Position numbers and translations under genes: made by a program. Positions 1-27,264 of a DNA stretch of 64,000 bases are shown piece after piece (within the stretch, counting starts at the first letter, position 1; each line of letters begins with the position of its first letter). Source of the DNA: Paludibacteraceae bacterium (lineage in GTDB: Bacteria; Bacteroidota; Bacteroidia; Bacteroidales; Paludibacteraceae); NCBI GenBank assembly GCA_017527495.1, contig JAFXPY010000025.1, positions 1 through 64,000 of the forward strand, written 5' to 3'. The notes under the pieces are model-generated. The model saw nothing but the letters and a program-made list of their open reading frames with translations. It was not told where the DNA came from and did no database searches.

Positions 1-149
1 ATTTGAATATCCCAATCTTTTAGAGGTGTTCCGATAGACTCGATTTTGTTTTTGATTGATTGTTCTATCTCTGACAATATTACCCAACTATCTGAACCAC
101 TAAAATCGCAAACAGATGAGTGCGACCGAACAAAATCGCTCGATAGAAA
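1..149 (-). pseudogene. 5'-less fragment of a type IIG / PglX-like DNA methyltransferase specificity region (possible silent cassette), continues past the left edge
   Basis: The minus strand is open from just after the recombinase stop codon to the window edge. It reads through SDSWVILSEIEQSIKNKIES and then GTPLKDWDIQI. This is the start of the TaqI/Eco57I-type target-recognition region in type IIG restriction-modification enzymes and BREX PglX proteins (family recognition from memory). No ATG or GTG opens the frame, and the stop of the recombinase gene is in the same frame immediately before it. The catalytic methyltransferase half is therefore missing. What is seen is a 3' portion without a start, which suits a silent cassette swapped by recombination, or a simple remnant. 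Which one depends on sequence beyond the edge. Confidence 0.6.
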
Positions 150-758
150 TCAGCCATTTTCCATAAAAGTATGGTAGTACTTGCGAACCGTATCTTTGTT
201 CACTTTTAGTAATTTGCCTATCTTAGCAAACGAAACTCCCTCTGCAAGCAAACCACTTATCAATTCTTCTTTCTTATGCAATTTATATGTGCATTGCCTT
301 GATTGCTTCCCTTTAGGTCTTCCTAACTGCACTCCTTCTGCACGTTTCCTTGCCAATGCTTCTTTCGTCCGTTGACTAATGAGATTCCTCTCAATCTCTG
401 CCGACAGCCCGAACGCAAAAGCCAATACTTTACTCTGAATATCATCGCCAAGCCGGTAGTTATCTTTAATCGTCCAAACGCGGCACTCTTTCTTCATGCA
501 GATACTCAGTATCTCCATGATCATAAATAGCGACCTGCCCAGCCGGGACAACTCCGAGCAGATTATCACATCCTCTTTCTCAACTTTCTTCAGGAGCACG
601 CCTAACTGCCGTTTGTTGTAAGCCTTTGTGCCGGAAATGGTTTCTTCAATCCATCCGTCAATAGACAACTTCTCTTTCTCGCAGAACTTCTGAATCTCAA
701 ACCGCTGGTTCTCGACTGTCTGCTTGTCGGAACTTACGCGGATATAACCATATATCAT
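150..758 (-). CDS. Mpi/Hin-type serine site-specific DNA recombinase (invertase)
   Basis: A 202-residue serine recombinase of the resolvase/invertase family. The N-terminal catalytic domain begins YIRVSSDKQ, with the nucleophilic serine at about residue 9. The helix with AEIERNLISQRTKEALARK at about 120-140 is the conserved dimer/E-helix region. LGRPKGK marks the hinge to a C-terminal HTH that includes SFAKIGKLLKVNKDTVRKYY. Length and order match small DNA invertases such as the Bacteroides Mpi master invertase. It lies between two fragments of methyltransferase specificity regions on the same strand. Inversion or exchange of such cassettes is a plausible job, but no matched site pair is visible inside the window. 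Its leader carries two 75-bp direct repeats. Confidence 0.9.
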   Translation of the reverse strand: MIYGYIRVSSDKQTVENQRFEIQKFCEKEKLSIDGWIEETISGTKAYNKRQLGVLLKKVEKEDVIICSELSRLGRSLFMIMEILSICMKKECRVWTIKDNYRLGDDIQSKVLAFAFGLSAEIERNLISQRTKEALARKRAEGVQLGRPKGKQSRQCTYKLHKKEELISGLLAEGVSFAKIGKLLKVNKDTVRKYYHTFMENG

Positions 759-780
759 ATTTTTTAGGAATAAAAATATT

Positions 781-962
781 CAAGTTTCGCAAGTACTATA
801 ACGCAGATTACACGAAAATATTTATCTACTAATTAAACTAATTATTACGAATTTTGCTCAGTCAAAAATTGAAAAAAATTACTATTTCAAGTTTCGCAAG
901 TACTGTAACGCAGATTACACGAAAATATTTATCTACCAATTAAACTAATTATTACGAATTTT
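781..962. repeat. Two 75-bp direct repeats upstream of the recombinase gene
   Basis: Copies at 781-855 and 888-962 differ at two positions only and are separated by 32 bp. Each opens with CAAGTTTCGCAAGTACT and ends with TTATTACGAATTTT. They lie in the 5' leader of the minus-strand recombinase gene. They may be regulatory repeats or crossover sites of the recombinase. Direct rather than inverted orientation would favour deletion or duplication of the intervening DNA. Confidence 0.9.
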
Positions 963-994
963 ATTTGGTCAATAATTATCCAAAATTAAAAATA

Positions 995-1044
995 ATTTAA
1001 TTTTCGCATGACAATAGAATTTTAATAACATGCGAAACTTAAAT
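995..1044. repeat. 16-bp inverted repeat with AAGTTTCGCATG-type arms
   Basis: Left arm 995-1010 and right arm 1029-1044 are inverted copies with one mismatch around an 18-bp spacer. The core TTTCGCATG / CATGCGAAA is perfect. The AAGTTTCGCA motif is shared with the nearby 75-bp repeats and with the ends of the repeat element at 7421-7777, so this may be the end of a small non-autonomous element. In 1045-1228 I see only AT-rich DNA with no gene. Confidence 0.75.
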
Positions 1045-1228
1045 AAATAACTATCTGTTTTCCGAAATTATGTCACTTGTGCCATTTATTCGGAAATAAA
1101 ACTTATTTTTAGACCGAAAGGATACGATAAATTCGGTAATTTACCAAATAATTCAAAGATTATTTCGGAATTTTACATTCTTTCGTATAAAATACGTGAT
1201 ATGTTACATGTGAATGAAACATTATCAC

Positions 1229-1262
1229 TGAAAATAATTGCGTATATACGCAATTATTTTCA
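1229..1262. repeat. 34-bp perfect palindrome at the 3' end of the methyltransferase remnant
   Basis: The arms TGAAAATAATTGCGTAT and ATACGCAATTATTTTCA are exact complements with no spacer. The palindrome overlaps the TGA that ends the minus-strand remnant at 1260-1262. It has no clean T-run, so it is only terminator-like. It could be a bidirectional terminator, a protein-binding site or a cruciform-type recombination site. Confidence 0.85.
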
Positions 1263-1671
1263 TTTTATCTCAATATAACCTACTTGCTTGCGCTCTACGG
1301 AGGTGAGGTTATATAAAGTAAAGATTTCTTTATCAATGGCTATTGCCTTATCTTTAGAGAATTCACGCTGTATATCATCCACTAAATCTTTAAATCACTT
1401 TTCAGTATCTTTTGTGAGTTGTAATACGGGTATCTTATCAAAGAATATCTTATTTAGTTCACGCCCTTGTTCTCCTAACTTTGGAAAATTATCAATGAAA
1501 CAAAATTTGAATAATAATGAATTAAGAAATGCAGTTAGAAAAGCTGTATTTGAACCTGTAATGATGAAACATTTTGGGTTGGTCATAAACTTCTGTGTGT
1601 CCCAACCAAAAGGCATATATTTTGTCATATTCGGATATATGATTTTGGGCTTACTAAAATCATCCTTTTAA
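1260..1671 (-). pseudogene. C-terminal remnant of a type IIG / Eco57I-like restriction-modification enzyme, with an internal stop
   Basis: Reading leftwards the frame gives DDFSKPKIIYPNMTKYMPFG, CFIITGSNTAFLTAFLNSLL, then DNFPKLGEQGRELNKIFF and DKIPV. This pattern is typical of the C-terminal TaqI-like specificity half of type IIG enzymes. A TGA interrupts it after DTEK at 1395-1397. The same frame then continues as FKDLVDDIQREFSKDKA to IEIK and the final TGA at 1260. An in-frame TAA also sits just before the first residue, and there is no usable start. It is therefore a broken cassette. Its order relative to the fragment at 1-149 (C-terminal piece first) rules out one gene simply interrupted by the recombinase. 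Confidence 0.75.
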
Positions 1672-1690
1672 AGTAAAGAAACTGAAAGAA

Positions 1691-1723
1691 TTTGCCGATA
1701 TCGGCAAAAAAAATGTATCTTTG
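1691..1723 (+). promoter_or_regulatory. Promoter with an 18-bp palindromic operator
   Basis: TTTGCCGAT / ATCGGCAAA forms a perfect 18-bp palindrome at 1691-1708. Its first four bases serve as the -33 TTTG, and TATCTTTG at 1716-1723 is the -7 element (21-nt spacing). A further half-site TTGCCGATA lies at 1744-1752 just before the start codon of the HTH gene, which suggests autoregulation. Confidence 0.65.
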
Positions 1724-1754
1724 CAGCAATCTTTCAACTAAACTTGCCGATAAT

Positions 1755-1880
1755 ATGAAATACATTTCCGTAATACAATTTGCCGAAAAATATGGTATCA
1801 GTGAGCGTACCGCGCGTAATTATTGCGCTACGGGCAAGATTGAGGGAGCTTTTCTCACAGGCAAAACTTGGAAATATTGA
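1755..1880 (+). CDS. Very short helix-turn-helix protein (41 residues), probably truncated
   Basis: The ATG at 1755, downstream of the promoter, starts MKYISVIQFAEKYGISERTA and ends GAFLTGKTWKY. The helices AEKYGISERTARNYC and GKIEGAFLTGKTW match the small HTH domain found at the N terminus of many Bacteroidetes Fic-type and excisionase-like proteins. In those relatives the chain continues after GKTW with an I-P-D/E segment. Here a stop follows directly, so the gene may be the stump of a longer one. The palindromes around its promoter fit a DNA-binding product acting on its own gene. An upstream ATG at 1692 would start inside the operator and is unlikely. Confidence 0.55.
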   Translation: MKYISVIQFAEKYGISERTARNYCATGKIEGAFLTGKTWKY

Positions 1881-1933: not shown

Positions 1934-1954
1934 CAGCCGATTTGATATTTGGTA

Positions 1955-2135
1955 CTATGTATGGCGGTTTCCGCTTGCCGGAATTAATAGGGAATCAGGT
2001 GAAAATCCTGGACAGTCCCGCTGCTGTAAATCTCAGATATACACATTATTATATCATTTTTCTATGATACACCACTGTTTTAATACGGGAAGGTATAGAA
2101 AAAGAGATAAGTCAGAAGACCTGCCACCATACACA
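1955..2135 (+). promoter_or_regulatory. Cobalamin (B12) riboswitch
   Basis: The core signature is present: TAATAGGGAATCAGGTGAAA at 1985-2004, the GACAGTCCCGCTGCTGTAA segment at 2011-2029, then CCACTG, GGGAAGG and AAGTCAGAAGACCTGCC at 2109-2125. GTATGG at about 1959 can close the aptamer with CCATAC at about 2128. Order and spacing fit the B12-box class. It is in the leader of the anion transporter gene at 2300. A strong terminator lies 14 nt before that start codon, so control by transcription termination is likely: B12 present, transporter off. Confidence 0.92.
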
Positions 2136-2254
2136 ATTCAGAAAACACCTCTCGAGGAAGAGACGCTGAAAATTGTATTAGATATTTACCACACAAAATT
2201 AGTGTGCCATTGTGCAATGCTGATATGTGTGAGTATGTATGTGTACATTTAAGC

Positions 2255-2286
2255 AGGCTTTTCCGAAAGGGAAGGCTTATTTTTTT
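2255..2286 (+). terminator. Intrinsic terminator between riboswitch and transporter gene
   Basis: A 10-bp stem with G-T wobbles (AGGCTTTTCC / GGGAAGGCTT, loop GAAA) is followed by a run of Ts, ending 14 nt before the start codon at 2300. It is the probable expression platform of the B12 riboswitch. Confidence 0.85.
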
Positions 2287-2299
2287 AACACATACAAAC

Positions 2300-3706
2300 A
2301 TGAATTTTCAATTTAATGTAAAACATTACATTTTGGCTCCACTTGTTATTGTGGCAGTTTTATTCCTGTGGTTTGTACCCACATCGTTTTTTGGTATCGA
2401 GGGTCTAACAGTCATCCAACAACGCACAATAGCCATTTTTTGTTACGCTGCTTTGATGTGGATGTTTGAAATCATTCCGGCTTGGGCAACATCAGTAAGC
2501 ACAATAGTTATGTTGTTGCTTGCTGTTTCTAAAAAAGGATTTGTCAACGATACGCTTGGCACATTGGTTGATCATCGCGCCATCATGGGAGCATTTGCCG
2601 ATCCTATCATTATGCTTTTCCTTGGCGGATTTGTACTTGCCATTGCAGCAAGCAAAGTCGGTCTTGATGTCTATTTGGCACGCATCATGCTCAAACCGTT
2701 CGGCACGAAGCCAAAATATGTACTATTAGGTTTTCTGATTATCATCAGCGTGATGTCAATGTTTATGAGCAACACAGCCACGGCAGCAATGATGCTTGCT
2801 TTTCTTGCACCCGTACTTCGCACTCTGCCTGAAAACGGAGGTGGTAGAATAAGCCTTGCTATGGCAATACCTATTGCGGCAAACATAGGCGGAATGGGAA
2901 CACCAATCGGTACGCCACCAAACGCAATCGCTATCGGACAATTGTCGCAAATGGACATACACATCGGCTTTGGAACATGGATGCTACGCATGGTTCCGGT
3001 AGTTATTGTGATGATTATCATTGCATGGCTATTGCTTATGAAACTATTTCCTTTCAAAGCAAAGAGTATTGAAATAAACATTGATGGAGAATGTAAAAAA
3101 GATTGGCATTTCTGGACAGTTACAATAACCTTTATTCTTACTATCCTACTATGGATGACAGGTGAATTGACCCATTTAGACTCTAATGTTGTTGCGCTTA
3201 TTCCGTTTGCTGTTTTTTCACTAATCGGTGTATTCAAGAAAGACGATTTTGCAAAGATTGACTGGCATGTGCTATGGATGGTTGCCGGTGGTTTTGCGCT
3301 CGGCACAAGTCTGAACCAAACCGGTTTGGCCGCCACATTAGTTGAGGCAATACCTTTCGGACAATGGTCGGCCGTTGTTGTACTGATTGCTTCAGGTTTG
3401 TTAGGTTACCTTTTGTCTAACTTCATTGCCAACTCATCGGCTGCCAACTTATTAGTACCTATTCTTGCAGTGGTTGGTACGGCTATGGCTAACAATCTTG
3501 CTCCTTACGGTGGTATTAGCACACTGTTAGTTTGTGTTGCTGCTTCAACATCTTTTGCAATGCTTTTCCCGATTTCCACACCGCCAAATGCTATTGCAAG
3601 TTCAACAGGACTTATCAACACTCACGATATGACCAAGGTGGGACTTATTATCGGAGTTATAGGCCTATGTATTTCATACACCGTTTTGCTTCTGTTTCCA
3701 ATGTAA
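2300..3706 (+). CDS. SLC13/DASS-family sodium-coupled anion (dicarboxylate-type) symporter
   Basis: A 468-residue inner-membrane transporter with many hydrophobic helices. SNTATAAMM, GMGTPIGTPPNAIA, the C-terminal SNFIANSSAANLLVPI and a second STPPNAIASS are the paired Ser-Asn and Thr-Pro-Pro-Asn motifs of the divalent anion/sodium symporters. Substrates in the family include succinate, malate, citrate and sulfate; the substrate here cannot be read from sequence. The ATG at 2300 is chosen because it follows the terminator; longer readings would start inside the leader. The gene is the first and apparently only one under the B12 riboswitch, which is unusual for this family. A terminator follows at 3768. 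Confidence 0.9.
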   Translation: MNFQFNVKHYILAPLVIVAVLFLWFVPTSFFGIEGLTVIQQRTIAIFCYAALMWMFEIIPAWATSVSTIVMLLLAVSKKGFVNDTLGTLVDHRAIMGAFADPIIMLFLGGFVLAIAASKVGLDVYLARIMLKPFGTKPKYVLLGFLIIISVMSMFMSNTATAAMMLAFLAPVLRTLPENGGGRISLAMAIPIAANIGGMGTPIGTPPNAIAIGQLSQMDIHIGFGTWMLRMVPVVIVMIIIAWLLLMKLFPFKAKSIEINIDGECKKDWHFWTVTITFILTILLWMTGELTHLDSNVVALIPFAVFSLIGVFKKDDFAKIDWHVLWMVAGGFALGTSLNQTGLAATLVEAIPFGQWSAVVVLIASGLLGYLLSNFIANSSAANLLVPILAVVGTAMANNLAPYGGISTLLVCVAASTSFAMLFPISTPPNAIASSTGLINTHDMTKVGLIIGVIGLCISYTVLLLFPM

Positions 3707-21994: not shown

Positions 21995-22306
21995 ATGGTA
22001 AAGAAAGAACTACAAATAGCTGTCAGACCGGAAGTAGCTGACGGCACGTATTCTAATTTGGCAATAATAGGGCATACGCCTTCTGAATTCATCATCGATT
22101 TTGTACGCGTTATGCCCGGAGTAGAAAAAGCCAATGTACAATCACGCGTCATCATGACGCCGGAACACGCCAAACGTCTTCTCAACGCCTTGCGCGAAAA
22201 CATAGGAGGATACGAGCAAAAATTCGGTGAGATAAAAATCCGTGGCAATAATGCGCCCAACAACCCACAACTGCCACCACTCACATTTGACGGCGGGTTG
22301 GCATAA
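21995..22306 (+). CDS. DUF3467-family protein
   Basis: 103 residues with YSNLAIIGHTPSEFIIDFVR and VMTPEHAKRLL-type blocks (here RVIMTPEHAKRLLNALREN) diagnostic of DUF3467, and a proline-rich tail. It is cytoplasmic and of unknown function. It lies 6 nt after the glycosyltransferase gene and is ended by a terminator at 22331. Confidence 0.92.
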   Translation: MVKKELQIAVRPEVADGTYSNLAIIGHTPSEFIIDFVRVMPGVEKANVQSRVIMTPEHAKRLLNALRENIGGYEQKFGEIKIRGNNAPNNPQLPPLTFDGGLA

Positions 22307-22330
22307 AAAACGATGCAGAAGACAAAAATG

Positions 22331-22358
22331 GACGTACAATTGTGCGTCTTTTTTTTGT
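22331..22358 (+). terminator. Intrinsic terminator after the DUF3467 gene
   Basis: GACGTAC and GTGCGTC pair around AATT (one wobble) and are followed by a run of eight Ts. Confidence 0.85.
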
Positions 22359-22423
22359 TTAATAGGCAAAATTAGGCATTTTTAGCCCCATATTCGGCAT
22401 TTTTTGATTTCGATTGTTAAAAA

Positions 22424-22455
22424 TTTGCATAATCAACAAAAAAGTATTAACTTTG
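22424..22455 (+). promoter_or_regulatory. gyrB promoter
   Basis: TTTG at 22424-22427 and TAACTTTG at 22448-22455, 20 nt apart, about 48 nt before the gyrB start. Confidence 0.75.
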
Positions 22456-22502
22456 CGTGTTAAAAAGTAAAGAAACAATTATCAAATAAAATACAACATT
22501 AA

Positions 22503-24476
<1,974 letters not shown>

Positions 24477-24481
24477 ACAAC

Positions 24482-25057
24482 ATGAACATCTGCGTTTACT
24501 GTTCAGCCAACAACAATATTGCCGAGTTCTACAAAGAATTAGCTTCAGAATTTGGCAAATGGATAGCCTCGGAACATTATACCTTAGTGTATGGTGGTGC
24601 AACAGGAGGACTGATGAGTGCAGTAAGCGACAGCGCAGCACAGGCAGGAGGCGAAGTTATAGGCGTATTGCCACAGCGAATATTACAATCAGGGCGAGAG
24701 GCAAAGAATTGCACCGAGCAACATATAGTCAGGACGATGAACGAACGCAAAGACCGCTTCAAACAATTAGCCGATGTGTTTGTTTGCCTGCCCGGAAGTT
24801 ACGGAACACTCGACGAAATGTTTGACGTCATAGCCTCAGGAACAGTGGGAGAACATCGCAAACCTATTTACATACTGAATTACCAAGGCTTTTACGACGA
24901 CACAATAGAGCAAATCAAGCACATGAAAGAACTTTCTTTCATTCCTCAACAAGAGAACTATACGCCACATTTTGTAACCTCGCTCGACCAACTGAAGAAA
25001 GAATTGAGCCAATTAGGTCAGAAGGCTCAAAAAATATATAACCTTACTACTGCATAG
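24482..25057 (+). CDS. LOG-family (TIGR00730) nucleotide 5'-monophosphate phosphoribohydrolase-like protein
   Basis: 191 residues of the Rossmann-fold LOG family. It has ICVYCSANNN at the N terminus, VYGGATGGLMSAVSDSA, MNERKDRF and LPGSYGTLDEMFDV. The last is the PGGxGTxxE active-site motif with serine for the second glycine; the arginine of the MNERK block and the glutamate are kept. Relatives release free bases such as cytokinins or adenine from nucleoside monophosphates. It probably shares the gyrB transcript. Confidence 0.9.
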   Translation: MNICVYCSANNNIAEFYKELASEFGKWIASEHYTLVYGGATGGLMSAVSDSAAQAGGEVIGVLPQRILQSGREAKNCTEQHIVRTMNERKDRFKQLADVFVCLPGSYGTLDEMFDVIASGTVGEHRKPIYILNYQGFYDDTIEQIKHMKELSFIPQQENYTPHFVTSLDQLKKELSQLGQKAQKIYNLTTA

Positions 25058-25080
25058 TAGTACAAAAAAGTTAGAATTAT

Positions 25081-26400
25081 ATGAATCTTTTCTGGAAAGA
25101 ACTTTTTGGGACACTCAAATCAGCCCAAAAAATGGAAGCTGAAGCACAACAACTTCAGCACGATTTGCAACGCTATTTTGAAGTTGCCAAGTCAGCCGAA
25201 TTAGCTGAATATATCGAACTTGAGAAAGAGGTAACCACAGCCGAATTCAAAGAGAGAAAACGCACACTTCAAAATCGCAAGTACAAAGACACACAAGAGT
25301 TTCGTGATTGGTCGAAGTTTCAAAAACTCGAAAAGGATAAGGCACTCCAATTGTATTTCAAGACAATAGAGTCGCCTATGCTCAAAGAATATCTGCAATT
25401 CCAAAAAACACCCGACTACACAAAATTGTCAAGTCGCAAAGAGGTTGTTGCAGACCCTATTCTTCAACAATACAAAAACTTTGAGAAATCAAAAGAGTAC
25501 AAAAACTATATCCGTCTCAATGGCTCGTATATTCTTGACGAATACAAAGCTTTGAAACAAGTGGTGTCAACACCTGAATTCCAAGAGTCAAATAACTTCT
25601 GGGCAAATCCGAAACGCTGGGAGACAACGCCAGAAGCAAAACGCTACGATCGCTACAACTCTCTGCAACATACACCGGATATTGAGTTCTACCGTGCTCA
25701 AAACCGCGAGCGTATGATAGAGATGAGCAAGTACGAATGTACTCTTGACGAGACTTTCCGTGGCGACATGTCGCAACGTTGGAAAAATGAATTCACACTC
25801 GGAGTTAAAGGCGACGAGAGCAAGATGAAAACAAAATTCTCACTTGCCAATCAACAACAAGCCTATACTTTCGGACGCAACACCTCTCTCGTGGAAGGTG
25901 CTGTGCGTATTCTCACACGTAAAGAGCATGCTGTGTCGCCAGTATGGGATGCAAAGAAAGGCTTTGTAGAGCACGACTTTGAATACACCTCCGACATGCT
26001 TGAATCGCGCCAATTTGCGCAAAACAAAGGTTTGTTTATGGTCAAGCTTCGTTGCACGGGCAAGTTGCACCATGCATGTTTCCTCAAGGGAAATCAGCCA
26101 CTGCCACTCGTTACATTGTTCCATTTCGATGGCAAAAAAGTTACTCTTGGAGCAGCAACACAACACAGCAACTCACGCGGCGAAGTGACCGGTTTGAACC
26201 TGTCAAAATATCACATATTCAGTCTGCGCTGGACCGACCGCGAGCTGGTATGGTATGTTAACAATATTGAGGTTTACCGCTGCGTAAACAACATGACTGA
26301 TAACGAATTGCGTATTGCATTTAACTCATTTATCTCTGAAAATCAAAAACCGTCAGAGGGAACATTTGATATTGAGTGGGTTAAAGCATATAAATTCTAA
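25081..26400 (+). CDS. Conserved Bacteroidales protein: N-terminal helical repeats plus C-terminal concanavalin-like (GH16-like) domain
   Basis: 439 residues, no signal peptide. Residues 1-220 form charged helical repeats of about 30 residues with a recurring F/Y-x-x-F/L pattern (DTQEFRDWSKFQKLEK, SPMLKEYLQFQKTPDY, NFEKSKEYKNYIRL). Residues 230-439 look like a jelly-roll lectin/GH16 fold, with DETFRGDMSQRW, VEHDFEYTSDMLESRQ, LFMVKLRCTG, TLFHFDGKKVTLG, YHIFSLRWTDRELVWYVNN and the closing FDIEWVKAYKF. The GH16 catalytic ExDxxE motif is not evident. I recall near-identical architectures across Bacteroidales. Function is unknown; a cytoplasmic sugar-binding protein is odd. Confidence 0.75.
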   Translation: MNLFWKELFGTLKSAQKMEAEAQQLQHDLQRYFEVAKSAELAEYIELEKEVTTAEFKERKRTLQNRKYKDTQEFRDWSKFQKLEKDKALQLYFKTIESPMLKEYLQFQKTPDYTKLSSRKEVVADPILQQYKNFEKSKEYKNYIRLNGSYILDEYKALKQVVSTPEFQESNNFWANPKRWETTPEAKRYDRYNSLQHTPDIEFYRAQNRERMIEMSKYECTLDETFRGDMSQRWKNEFTLGVKGDESKMKTKFSLANQQQAYTFGRNTSLVEGAVRILTRKEHAVSPVWDAKKGFVEHDFEYTSDMLESRQFAQNKGLFMVKLRCTGKLHHACFLKGNQPLPLVTLFHFDGKKVTLGAATQHSNSRGEVTGLNLSKYHIFSLRWTDRELVWYVNNIEVYRCVNNMTDNELRIAFNSFISENQKPSEGTFDIEWVKAYKF

Positions 26401-26403
26401 ATC

Positions 26404-27264
26404 ATGCATATCGTAAATATCAACGACCAAATAGCCATTGGAGGAAACAAACGTTTCACTCTTTTGGCAGGTCCGTGCGCCATAGAGAATAGAGAGATGG
26501 CAATATATACTGCTCGCACACTAAAACAAGTGTGCGAGCAGTTGGGTATCAATCTTGTGTTCAAAGCGTCCTACGACAAGGCCAACCGTTCGTCTGTTGG
26601 TTCGAGCCGCGGTGTGGGAATGGAAAAAGGCCTTGACATACTTCAAGAAATCAAAGAGAGCCTGCAACTACCGATAGTCACCGATGTTCATGAGACATGG
26701 CAATGCCAGAGAGTTGCACAAGTGGCAGATATACTGCAAATACCTGCCTTCCTCTCACGTCAGACAGACCTGCTCATTGCAGCAGCAGAGACAGGACGAT
26801 GCGTGAACGTGAAAAAAGGTCAATTCATGGCGCCATGGGACATGCAAAACGTGGTAAAAAAAATTGAAAGTACCGGAAACCGAGGCATATTGCTTACCGA
26901 ACGCGGGACATCATTTGGCTACAACAATCTCATCGTTGATATGACAGGTCTTGTCGAAATGCGACAGTTGGGTTATCCCATTGTTTTTGATGCAACACAT
27001 TCCGTTCAAAAACCATCAGGCCAAGGGACATCAACAGGAGGCAATCGCAATATGGTACCTTATTTATTAAGAGCAGCACTTGCCGTAGGTGTTGACGCTC
27101 TGTTTCTTGAGGTGCATCCTAACCCTGAGATAGCTATTTCAGACGGACCAAATCAATTATACCTTTCAAATATTGAAAACATATTGCAACAAGCTATAGC
27201 AATAGACGATTTATTGCATAGTCTGAACACAAAAGACAACAATCAACCTATTGAAATAAAATAG
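26404..27264 (+). CDS. kdsA: 3-deoxy-8-phosphooctulonate (Kdo-8-P) synthase
   Basis: 286 residues of the DAHP synthase I/KdsA family. LLAGPCAIENREMA, FKASYDKANRSSVGSSRGVG, TDVHETWQ, LSRQTDLLIAAA, NVKKGQFMAPWD, LTERGTSFGYNN and FDATHSVQKP are all present. It condenses phosphoenolpyruvate and arabinose-5-phosphate to Kdo-8-phosphate for the LPS inner core. It is followed 3 nt later by the arabinose-5-phosphate isomerase gene, which supplies its substrate. Confidence 0.97.
   Translation: MHIVNINDQIAIGGNKRFTLLAGPCAIENREMAIYTARTLKQVCEQLGINLVFKASYDKANRSSVGSSRGVGMEKGLDILQEIKESLQLPIVTDVHETWQCQRVAQVADILQIPAFLSRQTDLLIAAAETGRCVNVKKGQFMAPWDMQNVVKKIESTGNRGILLTERGTSFGYNNLIVDMTGLVEMRQLGYPIVFDATHSVQKPSGQGTSTGGNRNMVPYLLRAALAVGVDALFLEVHPNPEIAISDGPNQLYLSNIENILQQAIAIDDLLHSLNTKDNNQPIEIK

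What the first reader, a model, noticed from the sequence alone, without database searches (positions are those of the whole stretch)
1..1671. Serine invertase between two orphan type IIG/PglX specificity fragments: edge of a phase-variable modification locus
Two 3' fragments of type IIG/PglX-like methyltransferases (1-149 and 1260-1671) lie on the same strand with an Mpi-type recombinase between them. Neither has a start or a catalytic half, and their order excludes one gene split by insertion. Recombinase-driven cassette switching is established for type I hsdS genes and some BREX and type IIG loci. A serine Mpi-type enzyme with startless specificity cassettes would be a less usual arrangement. 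The role is inference.
Basis: partly seen in the sequence, partly recalled or inferred. Interest (0 to 1): 0.75.

Follow-up and report, generated by a model that had tools for sequence, protein, structure and literature searches.

The report
Invertase-switched DNA methyltransferase specificity locus
The window begins at the broken edge of a bacterial locus in which a dedicated DNA-flipping enzyme swaps pieces of a DNA methyltransferase so that it reads different target sequences; related loci, including two closed Lactococcus plasmids caught in opposite states, show that the flipping happens and suggest that each half of the recognition domain can be exchanged separately.

Summary
Base 1 is a contig edge. 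The missing 5' part of the methyltransferase gene, behind a PLD/SNF2-helicase gene, ends contig C7 of the same genome, 19 bp into the sequence that follows the invertase stop codon in the window. In RUG552 (L016), whose methyltransferase and helicase are 96-97% identical to those on C7, the locus is unbroken: invertase, silent startless specificity cassette, inverted intact 1,094-aa methyltransferase gene. Of 90 invertase loci, 48 carry such a cassette beside the invertase. Two inverted-repeat sites lie inside coding sequence: site 1 (~20 bp, LSDFVR) at the catalytic/recognition boundary and site 2 (~24 bp, DDFxKPK) in mid recognition domain. Recognition halves assort nearly freely. Two closed Lactococcus plasmids hold the same first half (99.2%) in opposite positions, bounded by sites 1 and 2. 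The second fragment is a decayed second-half relic. The kind is known (specificity switching by inversion, as in hsdS); the variant is a serine Mpi-family enzyme, a single-chain IIG/BrxX-like methyltransferase and two sites.

The parts
150..758 (-). Mpi-family serine DNA invertase, 202 aa
   Evidence: Resolvase PF00239 2e-34; NCBIfam PRK13413 Mpi family 332 bits, cut-off 272; 94% identical to the invertase of L016, where it adjoins the complete locus
124..142 (-). Recombination site 1 (GAGCGATTTTGTTCGGTCG), just behind the invertase stop; codes S-D-F-V-R in the methyltransferase frame
   Evidence: Identical 19 bp end contig C7 of the same genome inside the methyltransferase gene; equivalent inverted pairs in relatives
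1..149 (-). Start of a startless specificity cassette (first recognition half, A), cut by the contig edge
   Evidence: 94% identical to residues 825-871 of L016's methyltransferase; contigs of four unrelated genomes (L036, L039, L043, L062) end at the same spot
1263..1667 (-). Decayed orphan second recognition half (B, TaqI_C), in-frame TGA at 1395-1397
   Evidence: TaqI_C 27.9 bits; 76% nucleotide identity to the second half of L016's silent cassette; stop located
1642..1665 (-). Degenerate recombination site 2 (GGATGATTTTAGTAAGCCCAAAAT) at the 5' end of the orphan half
   Evidence: Position and sequence match site 2 of relatives (GGACGATTTCTTTAAGCCAAAAT)
1692..1880 (+). Truncated HTH remnant that in L022 heads an HTH-Fic gene beside an orphan second half; probable array flank
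   Evidence: Window 1634-1873 is 83% identical to L022 15974-16212; HTH_17 hit

Best explanation
The left edge of the window is one side of a phase-variable DNA-modification locus whose other side is the end of contig C7. In full it reads: PLD/SNF2 helicase gene, methyltransferase gene (catalytic domain, site 1, recognition half A, site 2, recognition half B), then one or more silent, startless A-B or B cassettes in the opposite orientation, then the Mpi-family invertase facing the array. The invertase inverts the DNA between two copies of site 1, which replaces the whole recognition domain of the expressed gene, or between two copies of site 2, which replaces only half B. Cells thus express one methyltransferase with changing target sequence; the helicase/PLD partner is probably the restriction arm. 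Shown by sequence: the anatomy, the paired sites, free assortment of halves, and a reciprocal exchange of half A in two Lactococcus plasmids. Inferred: that the invertase next door does it, that site 2 is used by the same enzyme, the change of target motif, and current activity in the window's organism. Fragment 2 is an old second half left behind the invertase and now decayed.
For: Same-genome C7 end: methyltransferase residues 1-831 (96% to L016) behind a helicase (97%), ending 19 bp into site 1. Complete locus in L016. Cassette beside the invertase in 48 of 90 loci. Site 1: active/silent identity within a genome 0.94 against 0.73 when genomes are permuted (0 of 20,000 permutations as high; 10/18 identical over 24 bp). 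Site 2: 0.94 against 0.86 (0 of 20,000; 10/16 identical), while sequence on both sides of site 2 is only 0.32 identical. Halves reassort: B1 occurs with two A types, B2 with three, B3 with three. pJM1F active A equals pUCCL629A silent A at 99.2% over 496 nt with gene-side and invertase-side flanks unchanged. H. loescheii silent A start is 97-98% identical to the active copy of two other species in the inverted place. Contig ends: 16 of 80 within 200 bp downstream of the invertase, 4 upstream; eight contigs end inside or just past site 1. Most methyltransferase relatives without an invertase lack site 1. The locus is deleted right after GAGCGATTT in L089 compared with L081.
Against: In the window's own genome the TRD array is not assembled: searches found no A tail or B half outside C51, so neither the second site copy in full nor two states could be seen. 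No reads were available. Adjacency of C7 and C51 is inferred from L016. The block RPILRGRDIKRYGY (+252 to +306) is also homogenised within genomes, so some exchange may be homologous recombination. For site 2 no clean reciprocal pair was found, and 6 of 16 loci have non-identical site 2 copies. Three invertase-free relatives (L122, L126, L148) still carry site 1. In the Lactococcus pair the other A half is only 85% identical.
Confidence: 0.88

Rival explanations
1. The cassettes are exchanged by ordinary homologous recombination or gene conversion between similar recognition-domain segments, and the invertase is a bystander.
For: Long identical tracts (46-147 nt) occur in the conserved RPILRG block and elsewhere in several loci, and that block is homogenised within genomes. 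The 97-98% shared stretches of L061, L067 and L070 end near nucleotide 300, in that block and not at site 2.
Against: Homogenisation is sharpest over ~20 bp at sites 1 and 2, with dissimilar sequence on both sides of site 2. Site 1 directly follows the invertase gene in most loci and is absent from most invertase-free relatives. The core GAGCGATT(T/A)TGT is shared by Bacteroidales and Lactococcus with the same enzyme family. The Lactococcus exchange is bounded by sites 1 and 2.
Confidence: 0.07
2. A dead locus: a relic array with a leftover invertase next to methyltransferase pseudogenes, with no switching in this organism.
For: Fragment 2 has an in-frame stop; no complete cassette is assembled in this genome.
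Against: The invertase is intact, the methyltransferase frame on C7 is open to the contig end (849 aa, no stop), the helicase is intact, and both contigs end at points where other genomes' contigs also break, as expected if more than one junction exists.
Confidence: 0.05
3. Mpi-type global invertase that happens to sit here and acts on invertible promoters elsewhere; the specificity fragments are debris.
For: The family's named member, B. fragilis Mpi, is a global regulator of invertible capsule promoters (Coyne 2003, cited in PMC11868660); 32 of 90 relatives lie in other contexts.
Against: The genome has a second Mpi-family enzyme in a housekeeping context (C27:23618-24217) that could do that job; the same cassette-invertase arrangement recurs across Bacteroidales, Bacillota and Actinomycetota.
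Confidence: 0.04

Closest known systems
Type I hsdS shufflons (Streptococcus pneumoniae SpnIII, PMC4948785; Bacteroides fragilis NCTC 9343, PMC3090145)
   Same: Inverted repeats inside coding sequence at recognition-domain boundaries, silent partial specificity genes, a neighbouring recombinase, combinatorial halves
   Different: Separate S subunit and tyrosine integrases there (in B. fragilis); here one chain carries methyltransferase and recognition domain, and the enzyme is a serine Mpi-family invertase
Type II RM gene-altering inversions predicted by Milman, Yelin and Kishony 2023 (NAR, PMC9881135)
   Same: As I recall its abstract, it names type II RM systems as a newly predicted target of programmed inversions; the loci here may be among its predictions
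   Different: The paper is not held, so the overlap, the enzyme and any second site could not be compared
Pin17FIII of Prevotella intermedia 17F (PMC5608340)
   Same: 1,117-aa type IIG gene, a 918-nt ORF on the opposite strand 24 bp further on, SNF2 helicase upstream: the same anatomy as L016. Three motifs reported with shared halves: GGYGAB, GGNYAG, CCNYAG; only GGYGAB was assigned to the cloned gene
   Different: The authors did not describe an invertase or inversion; the strain's sequence is not held here, so homology was not tested
Mpi of Bacteroides fragilis (serine invertase of capsule promoters)
   Same: Same protein family (NCBIfam PRK13413)
   Different: Here it is dedicated to one local locus and its sites lie in coding sequence
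BREX PglX/BrxX and CamA (structures 9ewz, 8c45, 7lni)
   Same: Closest folds of the L016 methyltransferase model
   Different: Far below the PglX model cut-offs; no BREX partner genes were seen beside the intact locus of L016

Membership tests
Mpi-family serine DNA invertases | Protein scores above the curated family cut-off | tested here: met
   332.5 bits against 272
Mpi-family serine DNA invertases | Inverts DNA between inverted sites | not testable with these tools
   Only comparative evidence of inversion in relatives
Phase-variable specificity loci (hsdS-like shufflons) | Expressed gene plus silent startless specificity cassette in opposite orientation | tested here: met
   Met in L016, L021, L034, L042, L070 and others; in the window's genome only the two broken ends are assembled
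Phase-variable specificity loci (hsdS-like shufflons) | Inverted-repeat pair at the domain boundary | tested here: met
   Relatives. Own genome: 19 bp shared by C7 end and window 124-142
Phase-variable specificity loci (hsdS-like shufflons) | Both orientations observed | tested here: met
   Reciprocal half A in closed plasmids pJM1F and pUCCL629A; not tested in the window's organism
Type IIG restriction-modification enzymes | Methyltransferase and recognition domain in one chain | tested here: met
   Eco57I, N6_Mtase and TaqI_C in L016's 1,094-aa protein; best PADLOC model REase_MTase_IIG 1e-137
Type IIG restriction-modification enzymes | Endonuclease domain in the same chain | tested here: inconclusive
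   No Pfam nuclease domain in residues 1-390; restriction may lie in the PLD/SNF2 partner
BREX PglX | Above the NCBIfam PglX cut-off | tested here: not met
   92.9 bits against 500
DISARM | DrmD-type helicase above cut-off | tested here: not met
   138.7 bits against 610

The most novel reading that the evidence does not exclude
A widespread family of single-chain methyltransferases whose target sequence is built from two interchangeable halves, each with its own recombination site read by one dedicated Mpi-family serine invertase. One gene plus a few half cassettes would then give a product set of specificities (A types times B types). This would also explain the unassigned half-sharing motifs of P. 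intermedia 17F (GG or CC followed by YGAB or NYAG).
Probability: 0.6. Interest if true: 0.75.

Novelty: new variant of a known kind. Interest (0 to 1): 0.62.

Why it matters
If right, a single short gene array lets gut, oral and dairy bacteria change the sequence specificity of a defence methyltransferase by halves, as type I systems do with hsdS, but in one chain and with a serine enzyme of the capsule-switching family. It gives a ready explanation, testable on existing data, for unassigned methylation motifs in Prevotella intermedia and possibly Rikenella microfusus. It explains why many Bacteroidales draft assemblies break just behind this invertase, and it offers natural half-domain boundaries for engineering specificities. 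It also means that type IIG-like methylomes read from one culture may be mixtures.

Tried and rejected
Rejected: one gene split by insertion of the invertase (order of the pieces; L016 shows the real arrangement). Rejected: the 13-bp inverted repeat TAGTACTTGCGAA (175-187 and 786-798) as the recombination site; one arm is invertase coding sequence and the other is part of a repeat dispersed in the genome, and the repeat does not extend into relatives' upstream DNA. Clustering of A halves on full length failed because their first 100 residues are conserved; their tails were compared by eye instead.

Full report
What is in the window. The window is G000:C51:1-64000, and its first base is the first base of a contig. 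The invertase gene is intact at 758-150 (-) and belongs to the Mpi family by a curated model (332 bits, cut-off 272). Directly behind its stop codon an open frame runs to the contig edge (149-1). About 500 bp upstream of the invertase lies a TaqI_C piece (1667-1263) with an in-frame TGA at 1395-1397.

The other half of the locus. The protein of the intact gene in L016 (isolate RUG552, an uncultured rumen Bacteroidales) finds, in the window's own genome, residues 1-831 at C7:52680-55211, 96% identical, and the C51 fragment; nothing else except a weak hit to fragment 2. C7 is 55,211 bases long, so the gene runs off its end. A PLD/SNF2-helicase gene precedes it (C7:49297-52665, 97%). The last 19 bases of C7, GAGCGATTTTGTTCGGTCG, are window 142-124 in reverse complement. 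So C7 and C51 are two ends of one locus, broken at a shared sequence. That they are adjacent is inferred from L016, where invertase, silent cassette, second-half orphan, methyltransferase (1,094 aa) and helicase follow one another on one contig.

Family and spread. Eighty relatives of the invertase were taken from a collection of one genome per species. Together with genome hits, 90 invertase rows were compared: 48 have the specificity segment within 150 bp, 10 more end within 120 bp of the invertase, 32 have another context. RM-linked members include records labelled Lachnospiraceae, Bacillota and Olsenella as well as Bacteroidales. In an evenly drawn sample of 393 Bacteroidales genomes, 36 have the first recognition half. 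Of those whose surroundings were read, six lie beside the invertase (G000, G094, G095, G123, G288, G323) and the others are single genes without it in the stretch read.

Two sites. Exact inverted repeats were listed in twelve loci. Site 1 (20-28 bp in most, up to 109 bp) starts a few bases behind the invertase stop and recurs inverted in the intact gene, where it codes LSDFVR at the end of the catalytic domain. Site 2 (22-27 bp, GGACGATTTCTTTAAGCC and variants) codes DDFxKPK inside the recognition domain. Both share a core close to CGATTT. In 18 loci the active and silent copies agree over the 24 bp of site 1 at 0.94, against 0.73 when partners are permuted between genomes; for site 2 (16 loci) 0.94 against 0.86; no permutation of 20,000 was as high in either case. 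Controls: +132 to +168 shows no excess (0.56 against 0.60); both sides of site 2 are much less alike (0.32), because the two cassettes are of different types. +192 to +246 shows a smaller excess (0.67 against 0.59, p 0.003), and the RPILRG block (+252 to +306) a clear one (0.84 against 0.69), so a third exchange point or gene conversion is possible. Methyltransferase relatives without an invertase match site 1 in at most 9 of 13 positions, with three exceptions (L122, L126, L148); five invertase-linked genomes match it in 10-12 of 13 at the expected place. So site 1 follows the enzyme and is not required by the protein.

Halves reassort. The first half (A) has a conserved start and one of about four tails (LINTHNG, LIATFP, LIYIPWHFP, and a long form of the second); the second half (B) falls into 15 groups at 45% identity. 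B1 occurs with two A types, B2 with three, B3 with three, B4, B7 and B8 with two each. The same A types occur in expressed and silent positions. Orphan B halves that begin at site 2 occur in L016, L022 (three), L034 and L074; fragment 2 of the window is another, decayed. The window's stretch 1634-1873 is 83% identical to L022 15974-16212, that is, the flank and site 2 are shared, while the B halves beyond differ: a trace of exchange at site 2.

Inversion seen. Plasmid searches found the same system in Lactococcus: helicase, methyltransferase, inverted cassette, Mpi-family invertase with the same protein accession in pJM1F and pUCCL629A. The A half expressed in pJM1F is the silent A half of pUCCL629A, 99.2% over 496 nt in opposite orientation; identity drops to background at site 1 on one side and at site 2 on the other, while the gene-side flank (AGAAAATAT) and the invertase-side flank (CTTTTAATG) stay in place. 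The reciprocal A half is of the same type at 85%. All four B halves differ. Both records are described as complete plasmid sequences, so an assembly break is not the cause. In Bacteroidales, the silent A start of Hoylesella loescheii (L061) is 97-98% identical to the expressed A start of Alloprevotella tannerae (L070) and Prevotella HJM029 (L067), in the inverted place.

Assembly breaks. Of 80 contigs, 16 end within 200 bp downstream of the invertase and 4 within 200 bp upstream. Eight end inside or just past site 1, like C7; four end where the A types diverge, ~133-142 bp on, like C51. L037 and L023 are 98.6% identical and L037 ends at the last base of the 21-bp inverted repeat found in L023. 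A 21-bp repeat is shorter than usual assembly words, so such breaks suggest mixed junctions in the sample; this is inference.

Mechanism, shown and inferred. Shown by comparison: anatomy, sites, reassortment, one reciprocal exchange. Inferred: the neighbouring invertase is the agent; site 2 is used by it; a change of half changes the target; the PLD/SNF2 protein restricts. The closest published case fits: P. intermedia 17F has a 1,117-aa type IIG gene (chromosome II 22231-25584), a 918-nt ORF on the other strand (25608-26525) and an SNF2 helicase upstream; its genome carries GGYGAB, GGNYAG and CCNYAG, the cloned gene makes only GGYGAB, the short ORF alone makes nothing (PMC5608340). Motifs that share halves are what half exchange predicts. 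That strain's sequence is not held, so its membership is not tested.

Known or new. Specificity switching by inversion is established for hsdS (PMC4948785, PMC3090145). From memory, Milman et al. 2023 predicted type II RM systems as inversion targets; the paper is not held. Full-text searches of the open library found no description of an Mpi-family enzyme acting on a type IIG gene or of a second site inside its recognition domain, but most subscription papers are not held. I therefore file it as a new variant of a known kind. Not all relatives are alike: Prevotella nigrescens (L150) carries helicase, methyltransferase, cassettes and invertase, but its repeats (ACGACCCTCAAAAGAGGG) lie further upstream in the catalytic part of the gene.

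Noticed in passing
window 779-988: Two direct copies (89%) of a repeat of about 100 bp that recurs at some 35 other places in the genome, between the invertase start and the orphan half.
   Followed up: partly
G000:C27:23618-24217 (L116 6610-7218): A second Mpi-family invertase next to lipid A-type and rubrerythrin-like genes with no specificity cassette; perhaps the global promoter invertase.
   Followed up: partly
L022 11801-13231, 13940-15190; L034 12049-13305; L150 10210-11469: AAA ATPase genes (DUF4143 type in two) sit between orphan recognition halves in several arrays, and an HTH-Fic gene flanks one; hitchhiking cargo in the invertible arrays is unexplained.
   Followed up: no
window 1948-2142 (+): Cobalamin riboswitch (Rfam RF00174, 103.7 bits) ahead of a CitMHS/sodium:sulfate symporter-type transporter gene (2204-3706), an unusual target for a B12 switch.
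   Followed up: partly
window 1229-1262: Perfect 17-bp-arm palindrome whose sequence recurs in other genomes of the family and order (L106, L107, L111, L113).
   Followed up: no
L150 7472-7507, 10178-10211, 12805-12822: Prevotella nigrescens chromosome-II-sized 'plasmid' carries a variant locus whose inverted repeats lie further upstream, in the catalytic part of the methyltransferase gene.
   Followed up: partly
L153, L154: Lactococcus plasmids pUCCL635A and pLLUC147A carry the same helicase-methyltransferase pair without invertase or cassette: apparently locked derivatives.
   Followed up: partly
L089 10600-10640 against L081: Segatella albensis has lost the array with the break right after GAGCGATTT behind the invertase, which may mark the crossover point.
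   Followed up: partly
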